Positions 17,760 to 48,949 of a stretch of DNA of 64,000 nucleotides are shown piece by piece. The stretch is from Micromonospora chersina (GTDB taxonomy: Bacteria; Actinomycetota; Actinomycetes; Mycobacteriales; Micromonosporaceae). Positions within the stretch are counted from its first letter, which is position 1. Each line of letters opens with the position of its first letter. Where the stretch lies: assembly GCF_900091475.1 (NCBI RefSeq), contig NZ_FMIB01000002.1, positions 4,526,001 to 4,590,000 on the forward strand, in the 5' to 3' direction. The position numbers and the translations under genes are program-made. The notes below the pieces were generated by a model. The model searched no databases, was not told the DNA's origin, and saw only the letters and a program-made list of their open reading frames with translations.

Positions 17760-18362
17760 TCAGACGTCCAGCGGGTGCGCGGAGATCCGGAGGCGCCCGC
17801 CGGATTCGACCGACCGTGCCGCCGCGCTGGACGGCTTGCGTTCGGCCTGGTCCTCGAACCAGGCCAGGAACTCGGTGGCGAAGTCCAGTCGGGGATACCG
17901 GTCGAGCACCTTTCCAGTGAGAGCCTCGGAGAACTCCTCGGGGCGCCGTCCGGCCACGTCCCAGGACGTCGCGACCTGGAGCAGGTGGGACTCGGCGTCC
18001 TCGGCGGCGGACACGTCGGCGCGCATGTGGGTCACGATGACGTGTTCCGCGCGGGCCGCGCGGGCCTCGGGCCAGCCGGCGGCCACTCCGAACACCCACG
18101 CCAGGTGCCCGCCGGCCTCCTCGAACGGGAGCGAGTGGCTGTCGAACGGCTCGGTGAGCCCGGTGTCGTGCAGGAGCGCCGAGACGTAGTACAGCTCGTC
18201 GTCGAACGCGATGCCGTGTGCGCCCGCGTACGTCACCCCCCACACGTACGAGCGGATGGAGTGGTTGAGCAGCGCGGGCGAGCAGTAGCGGGTGGCCACG
18301 GACAGCGCCGCCGTCGCCGCCGGCGTACGGGGAAGGTCCGGCAATCCGGAGGATTCGGGCAT
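17760..18362 (-). CDS. HD-domain phosphohydrolase-like protein
   Basis: 200 residues forming one HD domain: NHSIRSYVWG near 33 (first His), SALLHDTGL near 61 (the HD pair), EHVIVTHM near 106 and a distal Asp in the helical C-terminus. It is close to the small HD group that includes cyanamide-hydratase-like proteins, but no substrate can be assigned. A -10 box TACGAT (18374-18369) ends six bases before the ATG, so it may have its own leaderless transcript. It also lies 33 bp after the NACHT gene in the same direction and may be co-transcribed with it. Confidence 0.82.
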   Translation of the reverse strand: MPESSGLPDLPRTPAATAALSVATRYCSPALLNHSIRSYVWGVTYAGAHGIAFDDELYYVSALLHDTGLTEPFDSHSLPFEEAGGHLAWVFGVAAGWPEARAARAEHVIVTHMRADVSAAEDAESHLLQVATSWDVAGRRPEEFSEALTGKVLDRYPRLDFATEFLAWFEDQAERKPSSAAARSVESGGRLRISAHPLDV

Positions 18363-18395
18363 GAGTGGATCGTAGTTCCGCCGTGCCGGTCCTGG

Positions 18396-20543
18396 TCACC
18401 GCGTCGAGGTGGGCTCCGCTGGATCCTGCCGTGCCGGCGCCGCGCCCGGTCGCGTCCCCTCCCGCCGGGCCTGCGCGGCGGCGCGGAACCGCAGCAGCGG
18501 CATGTCGGCCTCGGCCCGCTCGGCGAAGTGGTCGAGCAGTTCCCGGTGCACGAAGATGTAGCCGTCGCCGACCTGACGCAGGAAGAGGCACTGCACCGCG
18601 TGGTCGAGGAACGGCAGCAGCGGGTACGGCACCAGGTCCGCCCGGGCGAGCCGCCGCCGGACCAGGGCCTGCTCGATCATCGGGGAGACCGCTACCACGC
18701 TGAACAGCAGGAGGCTCGTGCCGCCACCCAGCAGCACCGCGAAGCGGAGCGCCTCCATCGCGCCCCGCGCCAGCGCGACCGGCACGAAGCCGAGCACGGC
18801 GACGCCCACACCGAGCGTGAGGAAAGTGCCGGCCATGACTGTCAGCCGCTGCCGCAGCAACGGGCTGGGCAGCTCGCGGCGGCCGGTACGGGGCGGCGGC
18901 GGCCGGAAGTAGAGCAGCACCTGGGCGCTGTCGAGGCCGACCAGGGCGACCACCGTGGCGAGGAAGGTCCCGGCGCCGTAGCCGAGGCCGGTGGTCCAGC
19001 TCGGCCCGCCGGGGGCGAGCCAGCCGGTGAGCCCGCCGACGGCCGCGCCGGCGACGAGCGCCGAGAGCTGGACGGACCGTTCCAGCCCCGCGAGCTCCGT
19101 GGTCCAGGCCACCACCCAGCTCTCCGGGCGGCGGTCCTCGCGGTCGCGGATGGCCCAGGTCAGGTCGAACAGGTCGTCGTAGTTGGCCGCGTACATGAGC
19201 ACGGCCAGCCCCAGCAGGCCACCGGCGACCACCAGGCCGGTCACCGAGCCGAGCGCCCAGCCGGCGGCGCTGAGCAGCGCGGCGAGCGCGGTGCAGCTGA
19301 GCAGCCGGGTGATCGCCGTCGAGGTCCACAGCGCGGCCGAGTGCCGGGCCGACCACGACTCGTCGATCATGTCGAGCACGAAGACCGTCTGCTCGCGCAG
19401 GCTCAGCACCCGGGCGAGGGTGGCGAGGTGGCCGGCGGTCCGCTCGGGTGGATACCCGGGGTGCGGCCGGCGGCGCAGCATGGTGTCGACGTAACGGGTG
19501 AAGAGGCGTTCGCGGCCGGAGCCGGCCGGGGCCCGGTCGGTGTCCGCGCCGGTCGGGTCGGCGTACGCCAGCGCCATGATGCTGAGCATCAGCGGCGAGT
19601 CGGCGAGCTTCCACAGCTCGGGGTCGGCGTCGAGCGCGTCCCGCAGGCCGCCCAGCCCTGGCCGGTCGAGGTACCGGGCGATCTGCGACCGGTCCAGCGG
19701 CTGGATGGCGACGGCGCCGTAGAGGGGCAGCTCCGACCGGAGCCGGGCGTACTCCGCCTGCCGGCAGCAGACGGCGATCGGGGTGAGCGGCTGCCGGCCG
19801 TGGAACGCGGCGATCGCCTCGGCGCAGGCGTCGCGGTGCTGCTCGGCCACCTCGTCGAGGCCGTCCAGCAGCGGCAGGATCTCTCCGGCGGCCACCCAGG
19901 CGGTCGCCTGTTCGGCCGGTATGCCGTACCGCTCGGTGAGCTGCTCGACGAGCCACTGCTCGAGGGGTCGGCGGAGGGTGGCCCAGGAGGACAGGTTGAA
20001 CACGGCCGGGATCGGGGCGTCCGGGTCGTGGTCGGCGCGGTCGAGCAGGTCCCGGGCGAGTTCCAGCAGGGTGGTCGTCTTGCCGGCGCCGGGGGCGCCG
20101 ACGATGACCACCGCCTGGTCGAGCTGGTCGAACACTGCCGACATCGAGGTCCGGTCGTCCAGCGAGCCGGTGAGGCCGTCCCGGTGGCTGGCCCGCAGGC
20201 TCCACGGGTGCCGGCGGTCGTCGGCGGTCGCGGCGATGCCCAGCTCGATCCGCGCCTCCTCGTACAGGGAGCGGTCCAGGACGCTTGTCACCCAGTAGCG
20301 GCGGACCCGCTCCAGCAGCACCTTCCGGGCCCGCGCCGCGCCGGCGGTGCCCATCCGCCGCGGCTCCCGGCCGCGCTGCACCTCGATGACCACGAGGACC
20401 GTCACGAGCAGCAGGACCAACGGCCAGGCCAACCAGAGGTACGGGGACCAGCGCACGGGCAGCGCCCCGGTGGCGACGTTCGTGGCCACGCCCAGCAGGG
20501 CCACGACGATCACCGACAGGCCGACCATGACCACCCGACGCAT
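18396..20543 (-). CDS. membrane-anchored NACHT ATPase
   Basis: 715 residues. Two N-terminal transmembrane helices (about 5-24 and 33-53) lead to a STAND/NACHT ATPase: Walker A GAPGAGKTTTLLEL near 148, Walker B LPLLDGLDE near 223 and ICCRQAEY-type sensor 1 near 255. A helical region (LADSPLMLSIMALAYAD, typical NACHT winged-helix region) follows to about 370. Roughly five to six more hydrophobic helices lie between 400 and 640, and a soluble tail (YIFVHRELLDHFAE) ends the protein. There are no repeats of the sensor type usual in NLR-like proteins. It may sense membrane or envelope stress or phage entry (inference). No ribosome site is seen before the ATG; TAGAGA six bases upstream hints at leaderless transcription. 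Confidence 0.85.
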   Translation of the reverse strand: MRRVVMVGLSVIVVALLGVATNVATGALPVRWSPYLWLAWPLVLLLVTVLVVIEVQRGREPRRMGTAGAARARKVLLERVRRYWVTSVLDRSLYEEARIELGIAATADDRRHPWSLRASHRDGLTGSLDDRTSMSAVFDQLDQAVVIVGAPGAGKTTTLLELARDLLDRADHDPDAPIPAVFNLSSWATLRRPLEQWLVEQLTERYGIPAEQATAWVAAGEILPLLDGLDEVAEQHRDACAEAIAAFHGRQPLTPIAVCCRQAEYARLRSELPLYGAVAIQPLDRSQIARYLDRPGLGGLRDALDADPELWKLADSPLMLSIMALAYADPTGADTDRAPAGSGRERLFTRYVDTMLRRRPHPGYPPERTAGHLATLARVLSLREQTVFVLDMIDESWSARHSAALWTSTAITRLLSCTALAALLSAAGWALGSVTGLVVAGGLLGLAVLMYAANYDDLFDLTWAIRDREDRRPESWVVAWTTELAGLERSVQLSALVAGAAVGGLTGWLAPGGPSWTTGLGYGAGTFLATVVALVGLDSAQVLLYFRPPPPRTGRRELPSPLLRQRLTVMAGTFLTLGVGVAVLGFVPVALARGAMEALRFAVLLGGGTSLLLFSVVAVSPMIEQALVRRRLARADLVPYPLLPFLDHAVQCLFLRQVGDGYIFVHRELLDHFAERAEADMPLLRFRAAAQARREGTRPGAAPARQDPAEPTSTR

Positions 20544-20590
20544 GCGTCGTCTCTACCGTCCGCAGGGGCGCACGCACAACCCGCGTCCGG

Positions 20591-21121
20591 TCAGCAGGGG
20601 CCGTAGCCCTCGTCGAAGAGGCGGCGGGCCCAGTCCGCGTACCCGGCGATGATCTTCCGGACCGTGCTGCCGTCGTGCAGGAAGAGGTACGCGCGGTCGC
20701 CGCTGCGGGCGAGCAGCCCGTCGAACCGGTGCATCTCCTGTGGAGCGTCGAGGTCGACCACCGACGGGTACGCGGCGTGCACGGCGTCGACAGGCGTGCC
20801 GACGGTGATCCCTTCGGGTGTGCTCATCGGGTCGTCGAGCCACAGCAGGACGAGCCGGTCGTCGACGAAGATCGGGCTCACCGAGCCGTGCCCGGCCAGC
20901 GTGGGCCCGCACGCGTCCTCGTCGGTGCGCAGCACGCCGCGCCGGGCCAGGTCCTCCTCGGTGGCCCCGAACTCGGCGTTGCCGAGCCCGTCGAGGCTTA
21001 CCACCTCGGCGGCCCCGACGGGCCGGGCCGGCACGTCCGGTCCCTGTGGACGGACGCCGCTGCCGGCGATCGAGGCGGCCGCCATCAGTGCGGCGATGAA
21101 TCCGAATTGTCGCAATCTCAT
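20591..21121 (-). CDS. exported protein of unknown function
   Basis: 176 residues from ATG 21121, with GGGGGAT six bases upstream. A signal peptide (MRLRQFGFIAALMAAASIAGSG) leads into a domain with LGNAEFGATEEDL, then an acidic DEDACGPTL, PIFVDDRLVLLWL, ITVGTPVDAVHAAYP and GSTVRKIIAGYA. The GATEEDL...GITVGTPVDAV pattern resembles short secreted proteins with an ACT/beta-sandwich repeat, but I cannot assign a family. Two cysteines, one in DACG and one at the C-terminal GYGPC, could form a disulfide. Overlaps the gene before it by four bases. Confidence 0.7.
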   Translation of the reverse strand: MRLRQFGFIAALMAAASIAGSGVRPQGPDVPARPVGAAEVVSLDGLGNAEFGATEEDLARRGVLRTDEDACGPTLAGHGSVSPIFVDDRLVLLWLDDPMSTPEGITVGTPVDAVHAAYPSVVDLDAPQEMHRFDGLLARSGDRAYLFLHDGSTVRKIIAGYADWARRLFDEGYGPC

Positions 21122-21732
21122 GCAATCCCCCAGTCCCCAACGGGACCGGGGCGTGGAGGTTGCTGGTGCTGGTCGGATTGCCGCAGTTCCCACTCCTCGG
21201 CCAGCTCGTCCCAGTAGTCCGCGGAGAGTCCGCGCCGGCCGTGCGCCAGCCAACCGGCCGTGTCGCGCTCCAGGTGCAGGCCCAGTTCGGCGAACGGGTC
21301 GATCCACGGCCCCGGCTCGGCGCCGAGCCGGGCGAGCGCCGCGTTGATCGGCCACTCGGCGCGCGGCCGGTCCAGCCGGTCGTCGAAGCAGGGCCCCCAG
21401 CTCGGCTCGCCGCCCAGCCAGACCGCCGCGGCCTGGTGGCCGAGCCCGCCGGCGAACTCCGCCTCCAGGTACGCCACCGGACCCTCCCGGGACCAGCGGG
21501 CCAGCAGTTCGTCAAGGGCGGGCGAGAGGACGAGCTGGAACGGCTGCTCCGCCGAGGGCTCCCCGGTGGCGAAGTCGGGCAGCCGGCCGGTCAGCTCCTC
21601 GACGAGCTGCGGGGTGACCGGCAGCAGCGCGAAGTCCTGGCGGAGCGCGGCGAGCACCGCGTGGTCCAGGCCGGCGGTCTGCTCGCGGAGCAGCTCGACG
21701 TCGGCGACCACCGCGCTGAGCTGGTAACTCAT
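21118..21732 (-). CDS. cytosolic protein of unknown function, first gene of NACHT cluster
   Basis: 204 residues from ATG 21732; GAGGGGAG lies five bases upstream. An N-terminal helical part (YQLSAVVADVELLREQTAGLDHAVLAALRQ) is followed by an acidic region with conserved-looking tryptophans (AVWLGGEPSWGPCFDDRLDRP, EPGPWIDPFAELGLHL, GLSADYWDELAEEWELRQ). No signal peptide or known motif. It overlaps the secreted gene by four bases (ATGA) and lies directly behind the compound element at 21746-21782. Confidence 0.72.
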   Translation of the reverse strand: MSYQLSAVVADVELLREQTAGLDHAVLAALRQDFALLPVTPQLVEELTGRLPDFATGEPSAEQPFQLVLSPALDELLARWSREGPVAYLEAEFAGGLGHQAAAVWLGGEPSWGPCFDDRLDRPRAEWPINAALARLGAEPGPWIDPFAELGLHLERDTAGWLAHGRRGLSADYWDELAEEWELRQSDQHQQPPRPGPVGDWGIA

Positions 21733-21745
21733 CCGCTCCCCTCGG

Positions 21746-21782
21746 CGTCCACAGGCTGTGGATGGAACATGTGTACGACGGT
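21746..21782 (-). promoter_or_regulatory. compound repeated element, copy B
   Basis: Read on the minus strand: TCGTACACATGTTCCA (21778-21763), a 10-of-12 match in fixed bases to the actinobacterial SOS box TCGAAC-N4-GTTCGA. It directly abuts the palindrome TCCACAG-C-CTGTGGA (21762-21748). The element shares 33 of 37 bases with 48054-48090. It ends 13 bases before the ATG of the NACHT-cluster lead gene, next to its ribosome site. Confidence 0.65.
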
Positions 21783-24882: not shown

Positions 24883-24991
24883 TTCTGTCTCCGGGTGCCG
24901 GTAACGTCCCTGCGGGTCAGGTCACGGGGTGGTGGGTGGTCACCCGGGGCCGACCGGCGCAGAATGGCTCGGTCGAGAGGAGGCGGGACGG

Positions 24992-27715
24992 GTGGCACTG
25001 GCCCTTTACCGCAAGTACCGGCCCCGTACGTTCGCCGAGGTCATCGGCCAGGAGCACGTCACCGAGCCGCTGTCGCAGGCGCTGCGCAGCGGGCGGCTCA
25101 ACCACGCCTACCTCTTCTCCGGCCCCCGGGGCTGCGGCAAGACCTCCAGCGCCCGGATCCTGGCCCGCTCGCTCAACTGCGAGCAGGGGCCCACGCCCGA
25201 ACCGTGCGGGCAGTGTGAGTCGTGTCGCTCGTTGGCCACCGACGGCGCCGGGTCGATCGACGTCATCGAGATCGACGCGGCCAGCCACGGCGGTGTCGAC
25301 GACGCCCGTGAGCTTCGCGAGAAGGCGTTCTTCGCGCCGGCCCGCAGCCGGTTCAAGATCTACGTCATCGACGAGGCGCACATGGTCTCGTCGGCCGGCT
25401 TCAACGCCCTGCTCAAGCTTGTCGAGGAGCCCCCGGAGTACGTCAAGTTCATCTTCGCCACCACCGAACCGGAGAAGGTCCTCGGCACGATCAAGTCGCG
25501 GACCCACCACTATCCGTTCCGGCTGATCCCGCCGAAGGTGCTCCGACCCTACCTGGAGCAGCTGACCGAGGCCGAGGGCGTGAAGGTCGAGCCGGCAGTG
25601 TTCCCGCTGGTGGTGCGCGCCGGTGGCGGCAGCGCCCGGGACAGCCTCTCCGTGCTCGACCAGCTCATCGCCGGCGCCGGCCCGGAGGGCGTCAGCTACG
25701 CCCGGGCCGCCGCGCTGCTGGGCGTCACCGACTCCGCCCTCATCGACGAGATGTGCGACGCGCTCGCCGCCGGGGACGGCGCGGCCGCGTACGCCACCGT
25801 CGACCGGGTCGCGGAGGCCGGGCACGACCCGCGCCGGTTCGCCTCCGACCTGCTGGAGCGGCTGCGCGACCTGATCGTCCTGCAGCAGGTGCCCGACGCC
25901 GCCGCCAAGGGCCTGATCGACGGCCCCGACGACCAGATCGAGCGGATGGCCGCCCAGGCCCAGCGGCTCGGCCCGGCCACCCTGTCCCGCTGCGCCGACA
26001 TCGTGCACAACGGCCTCGTCGAGATGCGCGGCACCACCGCGCCCCGGCTGCTGCTGGAGCTGATCTGCGCCCGGATGCTGCTGCCCGGCGTTGACGACTC
26101 GACCGGCGGCCTGCTCCAGCGCCTGGAGCGGATGGAACGCCGGCTCACCCTGGGTGGCGCCGAGCCGCCGCCGGCCGCCGCCGGCCCCGCGCCGGTCGCT
26201 CCCGCCCCGGAGGTACGCCCGGCCAGTCCCGCCCCGACCGCGGCTGCCGCCGCGTCCGACGTCGAGACCGCCGGCACGCCGGCGGCTGCCGGTGCCCCGA
26301 CCGGGGCGGCCGCCGCCCGCGCCGCCGCCGCGGCGGCCGGTACCCGCTCGGCGCCGGCCCGCCCCGCCGACCCGGCCACGAACGGTCCCGCCCAGCCCGG
26401 CCCGGGCACCCGCCCCGCCGACCGGGCCGGCTCGGCCCAGCCTGGCCCGACCGACCGGACGCCCGGTGCTGGGGCGGCCGTCGGTCCGGCGTCCGGTGCT
26501 CCCGCCCGGCGGCCGGTGCCCGCCTCGGCGGTGCTGCCCGATCCGGCGACCCCCGAGCCGCCGCGCCCCGGCGCGGCCCCGGCCGGCGCACTGGACGCCG
26601 TGGCGGTGCGCCGGGTCTGGCCGGAGGTGGTCGGCAAGGTCAACCGGAGCAACAAGCGGATCGCGGCGCTGATGCGCGACGCGGTGGTCCGCGACCTGGA
26701 CGGCGACACGCTGGTGCTGACCGTGAAGTCGACGGTGCTGGCGAAGATGATGGCCGACCACGCCGCCGTGCTCACCGACGCGCTCTACGAGGAGCTGGGC
26801 GGCCGCTGGCAGATCCGGTGCGAGGTGGCCGGCGAGCGGGGCGCGGCCTCGCTCGGCGGCCCGTCCCGCCCCTCCGGTTCGTCCCGTCCGGCGCCCGAGG
26901 CCGACCCGACCCGCTCGGCGGCCGGTCCGGATGCCGCACCGGCCCGTCCGGCGGCGGATCCGGTCCGCCCGGCCGGGCCGTCCGACACCGCGGGAACCCA
27001 GGCCGGGGGCCGGGGCGGGAACGCCGGCCCGTCCGGTGGCGCCGCCCGCACGTCCGAGCCCTCCGGTGGCCCTGCCGCTCGCGGGGCGGCTGCCGGCGGG
27101 GACGACGACGAGGAGGACTGGCCGGAACCGGCCCGGCCGGGGGCCACCGGACTGCCGGCGGGCGACAGCGCCGCTCCGGCGGCTGCCGACAGCGAAGACT
27201 GGCCCCTACCCGCCCGTCCGGGCGGCGCGGCACCCGTCACCGTGGCTGCTGCCTCGGCCGCCACCTCGATGACCGCGCCCACGACGACCGCCACCGGGTC
27301 GGGCGGTTCCGCGCCCGCCGTACCCAGGCCGGCCGGACCACCGGCCACGGCGCCGGCGGGCGGTGGCACGGCGAAGAACAGCGCGATCGCGGCGGCCCGG
27401 GCGGCCGCGGCGGCGGCCGCCGCCGGTGGCGGGCCGAGCAAGGGCCCGCGGGCGGCGCAGGCGACCCGGAAGACCGCGGACGCCGACTGGGCCGGCGAGC
27501 CGCCCTACGACCCGGACTACGACGGGCCGGTCGGTAACCGGTCGGCGGGCGCGGCCCCGGCGGCGCCCGCCTACGAGGGCTTCGATCCGGGCGACGAGCC
27601 GCTGGACGACGTGATCGACGAGCGGACCGCGCGGCAGTCCAGCGAGGAGCAGGCAGTGCAGTTGCTGCGCGAGGCGTTCGGGGCCGAGAAGATCGACGAG
27701 GTGGACGCGCGCTAG
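24992..27715 (+). CDS. dnaX: DNA polymerase III subunit gamma/tau
   Basis: Clamp-loader ATPase of the replisome, 907 residues from GTG 24992 (AGGAGG nine bases upstream; protein then starts ALYRKYRP as the family does). Walker A GPRGCGKTSSARIL is near 44, the zinc knot uses C63, C72, C75 and C78, and the Walker B VIDEAH lies near 126. AAA+ lid and domain III run to about 390. A very long Ala/Pro/Gly-rich linker (about 400-545) precedes a second folded domain (LDAVAVRRVWPEVVGKVNRSNK, about 548-620), and another low-complexity stretch ends in the acidic FDPGDEPLDDVIDE and the C-terminal helix QLLREAFGAEKI. There is no obvious A-stretch frameshift site for a short gamma form. Confidence 0.95.
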   Translation: MALALYRKYRPRTFAEVIGQEHVTEPLSQALRSGRLNHAYLFSGPRGCGKTSSARILARSLNCEQGPTPEPCGQCESCRSLATDGAGSIDVIEIDAASHGGVDDARELREKAFFAPARSRFKIYVIDEAHMVSSAGFNALLKLVEEPPEYVKFIFATTEPEKVLGTIKSRTHHYPFRLIPPKVLRPYLEQLTEAEGVKVEPAVFPLVVRAGGGSARDSLSVLDQLIAGAGPEGVSYARAAALLGVTDSALIDEMCDALAAGDGAAAYATVDRVAEAGHDPRRFASDLLERLRDLIVLQQVPDAAAKGLIDGPDDQIERMAAQAQRLGPATLSRCADIVHNGLVEMRGTTAPRLLLELICARMLLPGVDDSTGGLLQRLERMERRLTLGGAEPPPAAAGPAPVAPAPEVRPASPAPTAAAAASDVETAGTPAAAGAPTGAAAARAAAAAAGTRSAPARPADPATNGPAQPGPGTRPADRAGSAQPGPTDRTPGAGAAVGPASGAPARRPVPASAVLPDPATPEPPRPGAAPAGALDAVAVRRVWPEVVGKVNRSNKRIAALMRDAVVRDLDGDTLVLTVKSTVLAKMMADHAAVLTDALYEELGGRWQIRCEVAGERGAASLGGPSRPSGSSRPAPEADPTRSAAGPDAAPARPAADPVRPAGPSDTAGTQAGGRGGNAGPSGGAARTSEPSGGPAARGAAAGGDDDEEDWPEPARPGATGLPAGDSAAPAAADSEDWPLPARPGGAAPVTVAAASAATSMTAPTTTATGSGGSAPAVPRPAGPPATAPAGGGTAKNSAIAAARAAAAAAAAGGGPSKGPRAAQATRKTADADWAGEPPYDPDYDGPVGNRSAGAAPAAPAYEGFDPGDEPLDDVIDERTARQSSEEQAVQLLREAFGAEKIDEVDAR

Positions 27716-46542: not shown

Positions 46543-47994
46543 TTACGCGGCGGAGAGGTGTACTCCGTCTCGGCCGTGTTTCTTCACCGCGTAGAGGGCC
46601 TGGTCGGCGCGGCTCAGGGTGCGCTCCGGGGCTTCGCCGGGGCGGGGGAGCGCGACGCCGACGCTGATCGTCCGGCCGACGCGGCGGGCGGCCTCGGTGA
46701 GCCGCTCGGCGATCCGCACGGCCTCCTCGGGGCGGCTCACCTCGATCACCGCGACGAACTCGTCGCCGCCGGTCCGGTACAGCTCGTCGCCCTGGCGCAG
46801 CGCCCCCTCCAGCGCCCGGGCCAGCCCCACCAGCAGCCGGTCGCCGGCCTGGTGGCCGTACGTGTCGTTGACGTCCTTGAAGCCGTCCACGTCGATCGCC
46901 AACAGGGCGGTACGCCCCGGCGTGGCGCGCGCGATCCGCTGCCCGAACGGCCCCGTGTGGCGCAGCCCGGTGAGCGGGTCCGAGCTGGCCTGCTCGCGCA
47001 GCCGGGCGAGCGTACGCAGCCGGTCGAGGCAGGTCCACGCCTGCCCGGCCAGCAGCTCGATGAGGTTGACAGTGGTCGGGTCGGGGCGCAGCAGCCGCTC
47101 GTCGGCGACCAGCAGCACCCCGCCGCCGTCCGGCGGGCCGACCGGCACGGCCACCAGGGTGCGCGCACCGGCGCGCGTCAGCGGCAGGTAGTCCTCGGTG
47201 GGCGGGTGCCCCGCCTCGCCCAGCGTGTACGCCGAGCCGTGCCGGTGCGCCCGGGCGATCATCCGGCCGAGCGCAACCGGCCCAGCCTCGGCCAACTCGG
47301 CCCGGATGCGGGCCTCCAGCGGGCCGGGGGTGCCCGTCGGGGCGCCCAGCCGCGGCTCGCGCCGGCCGTCGAGGATCAGCACGGCGGCGGACAGTGCCGA
47401 GACGTCCCGGGCCGCGGCGATCGCGGCGGTCATCAGGTCCCAGTCGGTGGGGGCCGTCGTCATGGCGGTGGCGTGCCGGAGCAGCTTCTCGCTGCGGCTC
47501 TCGGCCGGCGGGCCACCGAGCGCCCCGAGCCGGGCGCCGAGCCGGTCGGCCAGCCGCTGCGCGGTAGCCCGCCACCGGTCCGTCTCGACCGGGCCGCTCC
47601 ACTGGAGGTCCAGCACGCCGAGCGGCCGGCCCGACCGGTCCCGCACCGGCACGCAGATCTCGGCCGTCACGTCGGGGCGTACGGGGAGGTAGTCGGGGTC
47701 GGCGGTCACGTCGGGGACGGTGGCGGGCTCGCCGGAGTCGTACACCCGGGCGACGATCGACGGTTCCGGGTCGCGGCGCGTGTCGCTCCCGGCCTTCAAC
47801 GGCACGGTGGAGAAGACCTGCCAGGCGCCGGTGGCCGCGACGCAGCGGAGCCGGTCGTGGACCTGGAGCAGGATCGAGATCGTCGCCGGGGTGTGCCGGG
47901 ACAGCGCCGCGACGGTCCACTGGCACGCCTCCAGCGCGGTCGACGCCATGGGAAGGCGGACCGTGACGTCCCGGACGACTCGCTCGTGATCCAC
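46543..47994 (-). CDS. GAF-domain diguanylate cyclase
   Basis: 483 residues from GTG 47994 (AGGA ribosome site five bases upstream). Two GAF-like sensory domains: about 15-150 (PDYLPVRPDVTAEICVPVRDRSGRPLGVLDLQ) and 175-320 (TRAGARTLVAVPVGPPDGGGVLLVADERL). The GGDEF domain runs from 335 (ASSDPLTGLRHTGPFGQRIA). The catalytic motif is an intact GGDEF near 409. RQGD sits exactly five residues before it, a product-inhibition I-site. Expected to make c-di-GMP in response to a small ligand, in the cytosol. No transmembrane helix. Confidence 0.9.
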   Translation of the reverse strand: MDHERVVRDVTVRLPMASTALEACQWTVAALSRHTPATISILLQVHDRLRCVAATGAWQVFSTVPLKAGSDTRRDPEPSIVARVYDSGEPATVPDVTADPDYLPVRPDVTAEICVPVRDRSGRPLGVLDLQWSGPVETDRWRATAQRLADRLGARLGALGGPPAESRSEKLLRHATAMTTAPTDWDLMTAAIAAARDVSALSAAVLILDGRREPRLGAPTGTPGPLEARIRAELAEAGPVALGRMIARAHRHGSAYTLGEAGHPPTEDYLPLTRAGARTLVAVPVGPPDGGGVLLVADERLLRPDPTTVNLIELLAGQAWTCLDRLRTLARLREQASSDPLTGLRHTGPFGQRIARATPGRTALLAIDVDGFKDVNDTYGHQAGDRLLVGLARALEGALRQGDELYRTGGDEFVAVIEVSRPEEAVRIAERLTEAARRVGRTISVGVALPRPGEAPERTLSRADQALYAVKKHGRDGVHLSAA

Positions 47995-48053
47995 GTCGTT
48001 CCTGCTCGGAGGGGGCGGGGCGCGATCAAGGGTACTCAGCGGACGAGGCGACG

Positions 48054-48090
48054 ACCTTCGTACACATGTGCTATCCACAGGCTGTGGACG
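48054..48090 (+). promoter_or_regulatory. compound repeated element, copy A
   Basis: TCGTACACATGTGCTA (48058-48073), a 9-of-12 match in the fixed bases of the SOS box TCGAAC-N4-GTTCGA, directly abuts the palindrome TCCACAG-G-CTGTGGA (48074-48088). It differs from 21746-21782 (minus) at only four of 37 positions. It lies between the divergent GGDEF and phosphodiesterase genes, 60 and 80 bp from their starts. Confidence 0.65.
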
Positions 48091-48169
48091 GGGCCTGTGG
48101 GTGCGGCCGGGACCCGCGGCCGGGCCGGCGACGCTAGCGTGGAGGTCCCGGGCTCGTCAGGAGGCGCCG

Positions 48170-48949
48170 ATGCTCATCGCCCAGCTCAGCGACCCGCACG
48201 TGACCACCGGCCCGCTCGCCGCCGAACCGGCGTCCGGGCTGCACCGGGCGCTCGGCCGGGTGCTCGCCCTGCGTCCCCGGCCCGACTGCGTGGTGATCAC
48301 CGGCGACCTGGTGGGCAACGGTCGCCCCGACGAGTACCTCGCGCTGCGCGAGATCCTCGCGCGCTTCCCGCTGCCCGTCCACCTCGCCGCCGGCAACCAC
48401 GACGACCGGGAGTCCCTGCTCGACACCTTCGGCGGCACCCCGTACCTGGGTGGCGGTTTCTCGGCCCACTACCACGTGGACCAGCCGGACGGGACGCTCG
48501 TGGTGCTCGACTCGCACGCGCCCGGGGACGATGCCGGGCGGCTCGGCGATGACCAGCTCGGCTGGCTGGACGGCGTGCTCGCCGGCCGCACCGAGGTGCC
48601 CGCCGTGGTGTGCCTGCACCATCCGCCGGTCGTCGTCGGCGTACCGGCCATGGACGCCATGGGGCTCACCGACGCGGACGCACTCGCCGAGGTGATCGGG
48701 CGCCACCCCCACGTCGCGCGCGTCGCCGCCGGCCACCTGCACCGGCCGGTGACCAGCGCCTTCGCCGGCACGGTGCTGACCACCGCGCCGAGCACCTGGA
48801 TGCAGGTCAGCCTCGCCATGACGGGCGAGGAGGAGATCGGGTGGGTCGCCGAGCCCACCGCGTTCCTGCTGCACCTGGTGTCGGGCGGCGGCTGCGTGAC
48901 CCACACCGTCCAGGTCAGCCACTCCGCCGGGCGGACCTGCTGGTTCTGA
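48170..48949 (+). CDS. CpdA-like metallophosphoesterase
   Basis: 259 residues from ATG 48170; AGGAGG lies seven bases upstream. All class III cyclase-type phosphodiesterase motifs are present: AQLSDPHV (5-12), GDLVGNG near 46, GNHDDRE near 78, LHHPPVVVG near 150 and GHLHRP near 192. Two-metal hydrolysis of a phosphodiester, possibly cyclic nucleotides. The gene is divergent from the diguanylate cyclase gene. Its stop codon shares two bases with the likely CTG start of the next gene. Confidence 0.9.
   Translation: MLIAQLSDPHVTTGPLAAEPASGLHRALGRVLALRPRPDCVVITGDLVGNGRPDEYLALREILARFPLPVHLAAGNHDDRESLLDTFGGTPYLGGGFSAHYHVDQPDGTLVVLDSHAPGDDAGRLGDDQLGWLDGVLAGRTEVPAVVCLHHPPVVVGVPAMDAMGLTDADALAEVIGRHPHVARVAAGHLHRPVTSAFAGTVLTTAPSTWMQVSLAMTGEEEIGWVAEPTAFLLHLVSGGGCVTHTVQVSHSAGRTCWF

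What the first reader, a model, noticed from the sequence alone, without database searches (positions are those of the whole stretch)
21746..21782. Compound element (SOS-like box fused to a palindrome) directly in front of the NACHT cluster
Read on the minus strand, TCGTACACATGTTCCA matches 10 of 12 fixed bases of the LexA box TCGAAC-N4-GTTCGA and is joined without a gap to TCCACAG-C-CTGTGGA. A second copy at 48054-48090 shares 33 of 37 bases. Chance conservation between two unrelated intergenic sites is very unlikely. It ends 13 bases before the ATG of the cluster's first gene. The SOS half is established biology for LexA; the abutting palindrome is not a motif I know. The joint element may be a damage- or replication-responsive operator.
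Basis: partly seen in the sequence, partly recalled or inferred. Interest (0 to 1): 0.72.

Follow-up and report, generated by a model that had tools for sequence, protein, structure and literature searches.

The report
DnaA-box site near replication origin
The 37-base element is real and strongly conserved, but it looks like a docking site for the replication-starting protein DnaA placed near the chromosome's origin, rather than a DNA-damage switch for the neighbouring defence-like genes.

Summary
In detail: 33/37 identity, 10/12 LexA match, 13 bases before the ATG. The interpretation needs changing. The LexA match is ordinary for this window. The "abutting palindrome" is a head-to-head DnaA-box pair: a CCACA-N3-TGTGG dyad occurs once in each of 29 regions downstream of dnaA and nowhere in 853 kb of masked background. 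The "SOS" half supplies a third, DnaA-like box (TCRTACACA) 13 bases behind. The element is in 159 of 160 own-genus genomes, 42 of 194 others of the family, 0 of 318 outside it. It lies 78-951 kb from dnaA in all 67 measurable genomes of 72, although in other genera its neighbours mostly differ and are often convergent. Gene A persists without it, and it persists without gene B. Box order equals that of E. coli DARS cores, spacing does not. Best reading: an origin-proximal, extra-oriC DnaA-regulatory site (titration or DARS-like reactivation). DnaA binding is inferred only. Against: weak outer box, unusual spacing, five far copies, absence from 28 of 44 genera.

The parts
21745..21778 (-). Site A: three DnaA-like boxes (34 bp); in relatives the 31-base core ends 3-16 bases before gene A
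   Evidence: 68 of 116 exact-core copies were assigned to gene A
21770..21778 (-).
   Evidence: form YYRTNCACA; G or A at its third place in other genera
21757..21765 (-). Site A middle box CCATCCACA (counterpart of DARS box II)
   Evidence: pyrimidines at its first two places in 116 of 116 and 36 of 36 copies
21745..21753 (+). Site A facing box GCGTCCACA (counterpart of DARS box I), 3 bases from the middle box
   Evidence: its first place is not a pyrimidine, so a weak box
48058..48104 (+). Site B: four DnaA-like boxes in near-symmetric order
48058..48066 (+). Site B outer box TCGTACACA
48071..48079 (+). Site B middle box CTATCCACA
48083..48091 (-). Site B facing box CCGTCCACA
48096..48104 (-). 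Site B fourth box (TGTGGGTGC as read on plus) at the 13-base step
   Evidence: TGTG at this step in 39 of 48 copies not in front of gene A
21118..21732 (-). Gene A, 204 aa, no Pfam, NCBIfam or PADLOC match at E 0.01; neighbour of site A
48170..48949 (+). Gene B, calcineurin-like phosphoesterase (PF00149; nearest NCBIfam models are cyclic-nucleotide phosphodiesterases SpdA and CpdA-type, below their cut-offs); neighbour of site B
24929..27715 (+). dnaX (DNA polymerase III gamma/tau), between the two sites; landmark

Best explanation
The element is a compact extra-oriC DnaA-binding site near the replication origin. Shown by sequence: two boxes in one direction (TCRTACACA, then YYATCCACA at a 13-base step) face a third box (TGTGGAY) across 3 bases, and many copies add a fourth box at a 12-13-base step; the 3-base head-to-head dyad also occurs downstream of dnaA, in the oriC side; the site keeps near dnaA while its neighbouring genes change between genera. 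Inferred: DnaA assembles on it, head-to-head across the dyad. Because the site is duplicated early after initiation, it would then change the amount or nucleotide state of free DnaA, either by titration or inactivation (datA-like) or by ADP release (DARS-like, since the box order equals the E. coli DARS core), and so help to set the timing of the next initiation. An effect on gene A or gene B transcription would be secondary.
For: Head-to-head CCACA-N3-TGTGG: 29 in 29 of 29 dnaA-downstream regions, 0 in 852,923 background bases with elements masked. In the own genome 6 of the 7 places of the palindrome (up to 1 mismatch; reversed control 2) lie within 411 kb of dnaA, two of them beside dnaA or recF. 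A pattern made from DnaA-box rules alone hits exactly the two sites in the window and nothing in 300 Markov-simulated windows. Pyrimidines at the two variable places in 116 of 116 and 36 of 36 copies; purine at place 3 of the facing box in 116 of 116 and 34 of 36. A fourth box at a fixed step, made of different letters in different lineages. Nearest site 78-951 kb from dnaA in 67 of 67 measurable genomes of 13 genera, 62 within 500 kb. No homologue of a window gene near the site in 5 of 6 loci from other genera; convergent neighbours in 18 of 45 classified loci. oriC box TT(G/A)TCCACA reported for Actinoplanes sp. SE50/110 (PMC3364876, passages). DARS box order (PMC5742627 sections 20-21; own check on MG1655).
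Against: No binding or replication data. The outer box TCGTACACA is no consensus box for this family (4 of 331 NNNTNCACA words in the 29 regions), and the TGT or CGT after it is conserved although DnaA rules do not demand it. Spacings (3 and 4) differ from E. coli DARS (5 and 3). In E. coli, DnaA prefers pairs 2-3 bp apart, but those pairs were modelled in tandem, and widening the purH pair by one base, to 4, cut DnaA association strongly (PMC11317965, abstract and passages); the same-direction pair here has a gap of 4. The stricter TCCACA-N3-TGTGGA dyad is in only 6 of 29 regions. 28 of 44 genera gave no match, including 64 of 67 genomes of g4. Five of 114 sites lie beyond 1 Mb (four in three Salinispora-type genomes, one in G335), and G204 has two copies on a second contig. 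Shared ancestry means genera are not independent points.
Confidence: 0.57

Rival explanations
1. LexA/SOS operator: LexA binds the outer half and represses gene A or gene B until DNA damage.
For: TCGTACACATGTTCCA matches 10 of 12 fixed letters. Sites with one mismatch in this genome include TCGTAC halves, among them TCGTACACATGTTCGA at 3966621 and one beside a dCTP deaminase gene; the box beside dinB reads GTGC like copy B (L178).
Against: Such matches are common in the window (nine with 2 mismatches). The G at place 15 is absent in 116 of 116 copies. The boxes beside lexA, dinB and dcd each have one perfect half and the two window copies have none; but one search was limited to 1 mismatch, which forces a perfect half, so this point is weak. 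Convergent positions in other genera.
Confidence: 0.1
2. Operator of an unknown regulator, or DnaA acting as a transcription factor, whose main purpose is gene A and gene B.
For: In the genus most exact-core copies are in front of these two genes: 68 of 116 at 3-16 bases from gene A, 29 of 116 at 62-117 bases from gene B, and 7 more of gene B type by reading.
Against: Gene A without the element just upstream in 10 of 14 low-copy genomes (the tool reports a stop inside gene A in G149 and a split gene in G300). Element present where gene B is decayed or broken (L072, L035) or not found within 400 bases (L007, L094, L113). Other neighbours and convergent positions in other genera.
Confidence: 0.17
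3. Another chromosome-organising site (origin anchoring, segregation or fork barrier) bound by an unknown protein that recognises the whole 12-base arm.
For: Near-origin position, 47-bp palindromes in several genera, conservation of TGT beyond the DnaA-like box, and two outward-pointing copies some tens of kb apart in the own-genus same-contig pairs that I read in the capped list.
Against: The pyrimidine and purine rules and the fourth box follow DnaA boxes, and the centre has the geometry of the dyad downstream of dnaA.
Confidence: 0.12
4. A dispersed or mobile repeat without function.
For: Extra copies in some genomes (12 of 160 own-genus genomes have three or more matches), among them Salinispora-type copies elsewhere.
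Against: No flank beyond the boxes is shared, by eye, between site A, site B and other genera; presence in 159 of 160 own-genus genomes.
Confidence: 0.03

Closest known systems
E. coli DARS1/DARS2 (DnaA-reactivating sequences)
   Same: Three boxes, box I opposite to II and III; head-to-head I-II pair; box II is CTATCCACA in DARS2 and in 79 of 116 copies here; box III is of TACACA type in DARS1 and here
   Different: Gaps 3 and 4 instead of 5 and 3; IHF/Fis sites were not sought; ADP release not tested
datA of E. coli and the datA-like DnaA-box clusters of Streptomyces coelicolor and Bacillus subtilis
   Same: DnaA boxes outside oriC; datA is always near oriC in E. coli (PMC4585315 passage); the clusters are reported to repress untimely initiation (PMC5742627 passage; primary papers not read)
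   Different: Here one 34-47-bp unit of fixed order and letters, often palindromic; how the Streptomyces and Bacillus clusters are built was not examined
oriC region and dnaA upstream region of the same family
   Same: 3-base head-to-head dyad
   Different: Only three or four boxes; not beside dnaA or dnaN
LexA (SOS) box
   Same: 10 of 12 letters in copy A
   Different: 9 of 12 in copy B; G15 absent in all 116 copies

Membership tests
Extra-oriC DnaA-box cluster (datA-like kind) | Several DnaA boxes outside oriC | tested here: met
   By sequence rules only; the outer box is non-consensus
Extra-oriC DnaA-box cluster (datA-like kind) | Close to oriC | tested here: met
   nearest site within 1 Mb of dnaA in 67 of 67 measurable genomes; five extra sites are far
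Extra-oriC DnaA-box cluster (datA-like kind) | Bound by DnaA and lowers initiation | not testable with these tools
   Needs gel shift, ChIP-seq, deletion
DARS | Core of three boxes, I opposite to II and III | tested here: met
   definition from PMC5742627 section 20
DARS | Box spacing shared by DARS1 and DARS2 (5 and 3 bases between boxes in MG1655) | tested here: not met
   here 3 and 4
DARS | Promotes ADP release from DnaA | not testable with these tools
   Biochemistry needed
LexA box | Match to TCGAAC-N4-GTTCGA | tested here: inconclusive
   10 of 12 (copy A) and 9 of 12 (copy B); common in the window
LexA box | Right half GTTCGA conserved among copies | tested here: not met
   G15 in 0 of 116 copies

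The most novel reading that the evidence does not exclude
This is a DARS-type DnaA-reactivating (or dedicated DnaA-switch) sequence outside the proteobacteria: a self-contained 34-47-bp unit that sets replication timing in Micromonosporaceae from near oriC.
Probability: 0.2. Interest if true: 0.78.

Novelty: new variant of a known kind. Interest (0 to 1): 0.56.

Why it matters
To my knowledge (recalled, not searched) how actinobacteria restrain and re-arm DnaA is poorly known. A short site, present once or twice in most genomes that have it, is easy to delete, move or bind in vitro, so it makes that question directly testable in antibiotic-producing actinomycetes. It also corrects a tempting SOS annotation in front of a defence-like NACHT cluster.

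Tried and rejected
LexA operator: examined by letter constraints and by LexA-type sites of the own genome; not supported, not fully excluded. Operator of the NACHT cluster or gene A: rejected as main role. Bidirectional terminator or RNA hairpin between convergent genes: considered; set aside because separate GC-rich hairpins with T runs stand beside several copies (by eye) and Micromonospora copies are only partly palindromic; no fold was computed. Mobile cassette: the two copies 775 bases apart in L068 were read; by eye they share about 35 bases, so this was not pursued. A DnaA-rule pattern in 80 chosen genomes lacking the element hit 9, with other letters; dnaA distances were not measured for these. 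PMC13270200 (DnaA domain I dimer in Actinomycetes; passages) and PMC6052347 (passages) were looked at and not used as evidence. Gene A was not searched in the large protein collection and no structure was predicted, because the site proved separable from it. Literature: seven paper searches listed no paper whose title describes such a site in Micromonosporaceae; for most listings only title and start of abstract were seen, so this is no proof of absence.

Full report
Observation. The two sites are as described. With up to 3 mismatches they are the only two in the genome, 26 kb apart, pointing outwards, with dnaX between them.

Distribution. An exact-core scan of genome contigs (one genome for each of 84,980 species) gave 111 stretches, all Micromonosporaceae by title: Micromonospora, Salinispora, Dactylosporangium, Paractinoplanes and an unnamed family member. 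With up to 3 mismatches, 201 of 354 genomes of the family have it: 159 of 160 in the own genus (130 with exactly two matches, 17 with one, 12 with three or more; only G149 has none) and 42 of 194 in 15 other genera; the reversed-pattern control is 0 throughout (sub-counts made by hand from its table, where a full palindrome counts once on each strand). A sample of the order gave 66 of 397, none among the 318 genomes outside the family.

Anatomy. In 116 exact-core copies from 113 loci (the own two included; four of the copies are the two strands of two full palindromes), the free places 14 and 15 are always pyrimidines, and the base after TGTGGA is always C or T. These are the rules of a DnaA box (YYRTCCACA read on either strand), not of LexA, whose G is expected at place 15 and found in none. 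These copies are related by descent and the core was fixed by the search. In a second set found allowing mismatches (34 of the 46 other-genus loci held, plus the own two; 16 genera) the pyrimidine pair holds in 36 of 36 and the purine rule in 34 of 36. A fourth TGTG lies 13 bases further in 39 of 48 exact-core copies that are not in front of gene A (one more at 12) and in 0 of the 68 that are; in the second set it is at 13 bases in 13 of 36 and, by eye, at 12 in five more. Dactylosporangium and others carry a full 47-bp palindrome.

Link to oriC. The 1.5 kb downstream of dnaA contains one CCACA-N3-TGTGG dyad in each of 29 regions examined, all that were held from search loci (6 of 29 in the stricter TCCACA-N3-TGTGGA form). 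Other head-to-head steps from 0 to 20 gave 5 loose hits in all, and the masked background of 852,923 bases gave none. In the own genome the palindrome with up to 1 mismatch occurs at 7 places: the two elements, one beside recF, one downstream of dnaA, two in front of a Clp ATPase gene, and one elsewhere. The reversed control has 2 matches, so single weaker hits may be chance. A rule-only pattern hits just the two elements in the window and none of 300 simulated windows.

Position. dnaA was placed in 72 genomes; in 67 it shares a contig with an element (not in G164, G165, G179, G195, G259). The nearest element is 78-951 kb away (median 249 kb), within 500 kb in 62, on the 5' side of dnaA in 55 and on the other side in 12 (contig lengths rounded to 0.1 Mb for some). 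Over 12 genus medians, with the farthest site taken per genome (31 genomes), distances depart from uniform (KS p about 4e-7), but genera share ancestry, so this is descriptive. Five of 114 sites lie beyond 1 Mb: one in G335 and four in three small Salinispora-type genomes; these four have an altered centre. The two copies on contig C2 of G204 are not among the 114.

Independence from genes. Of 116 copies, an automatic rule assigned 68 to gene A and 29 to gene B and left 19. By reading, the 19 are: six gene B with altered first residues (L020, L036, L040, L044, L084, L092), one cut by the end of the locus (L042), one decayed gene B (L072), one with gene B broken (L035), three with no gene B found within 400 bases (L007, L094, L113), one second copy in L068 between two genes, and six in other genera (L023 and L106 on both strands, L056, L057). 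Among 14 own-genus genomes with no or one element, gene A is present in all; four have the element just upstream (G213, G228, G259, G297) and ten do not (G149, G156, G175, G192, G211, G214, G231, G243, G251, G300). The tool reports a stop inside gene A in G149 and G259, and in G300 gene A is split; G243 has a degenerate look-alike palindrome there. In 46 loci from other genera, 45 had a called gene on both sides: convergent in 18, the rest tandem or divergent; in three of the 45 the simple GC-frame script placed the element inside a called frame (L197, L198, L201), so these are doubtful. Of six 20-kb loci from other genera, five share no gene within 5 kb of the site with the window; the g8 locus lies in the same dnaX region.

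Comparison. In MG1655 I took as cores the box triples with equal spacing at the two loci: box I, 5 bases, box II reversed, 3 bases, box III reversed (other weaker box hits lie around them). Here the order is the same with 3 and 4 bases. The review PMC5742627 (sections 20 and 21 read, other passages seen) states that box I is opposite to II and III and that head-to-head contact is a feature of DARS, and cites datA-like clusters in S. coelicolor and B. subtilis. PMC4245941 (passages) says the DARS2 core is conserved among gamma-proteobacteria near E. coli. PMC11317965 (abstract and passages) shows that E. coli DnaA prefers box pairs 2-3 bp apart, modelled in tandem, and that a gap of 4 harmed binding at purH; the tandem pair here has a gap of 4, which speaks against the simple reading. 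I therefore do not file the element as a DARS; it is a DnaA-type site whose box order resembles one.

Verdict. Weak as SOS biology, interesting as replication biology. DnaA binding is likely (my estimate 0.75) and the whole statement, with a replication-timing role, is put at 0.57; both are inferences from sequence.

Noticed in passing
G000:C2:4676576-4676612 (L171 1501-1537), outside the window: Two further DnaA-box dyads 22 bases apart, 410 kb from dnaA, between an Lsr2-like gene (recognised by eye) and a Clp ATPase gene; may be another extra-oriC DnaA cluster.
   Followed up: partly
L283, L284, L285, L286, L287, L288, L289, L290 (Salinispora-type genomes): Extra copies with centre TGN instead of GNC and second half TGTGGATAG; two that were read (L285, L287) lie near a gene for a similar, probably secreted protein, and two (L287, L290) are on a second contig.
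   Followed up: partly
window 46543-48078, minus strand: The divergent neighbour of gene B contains a GGDEF motif (RTGGDEF, by eye), although Pfam gave no match at E 0.01 for the start used.
   Followed up: no
window 17760-21732, minus strand: NACHT ATPase (PF05729), HD-domain protein and two small unknown proteins; only weak PADLOC hits for the NACHT protein, so a defence function is open.
   Followed up: partly
L173 1501-1516 and L182 1501-1516: LexA-type boxes at the start of two similar small proteins (MEQRRHWWNGKWGRL.. and ..VVRRWWNGVWGRL..); the first has no NCBIfam match.
   Followed up: no
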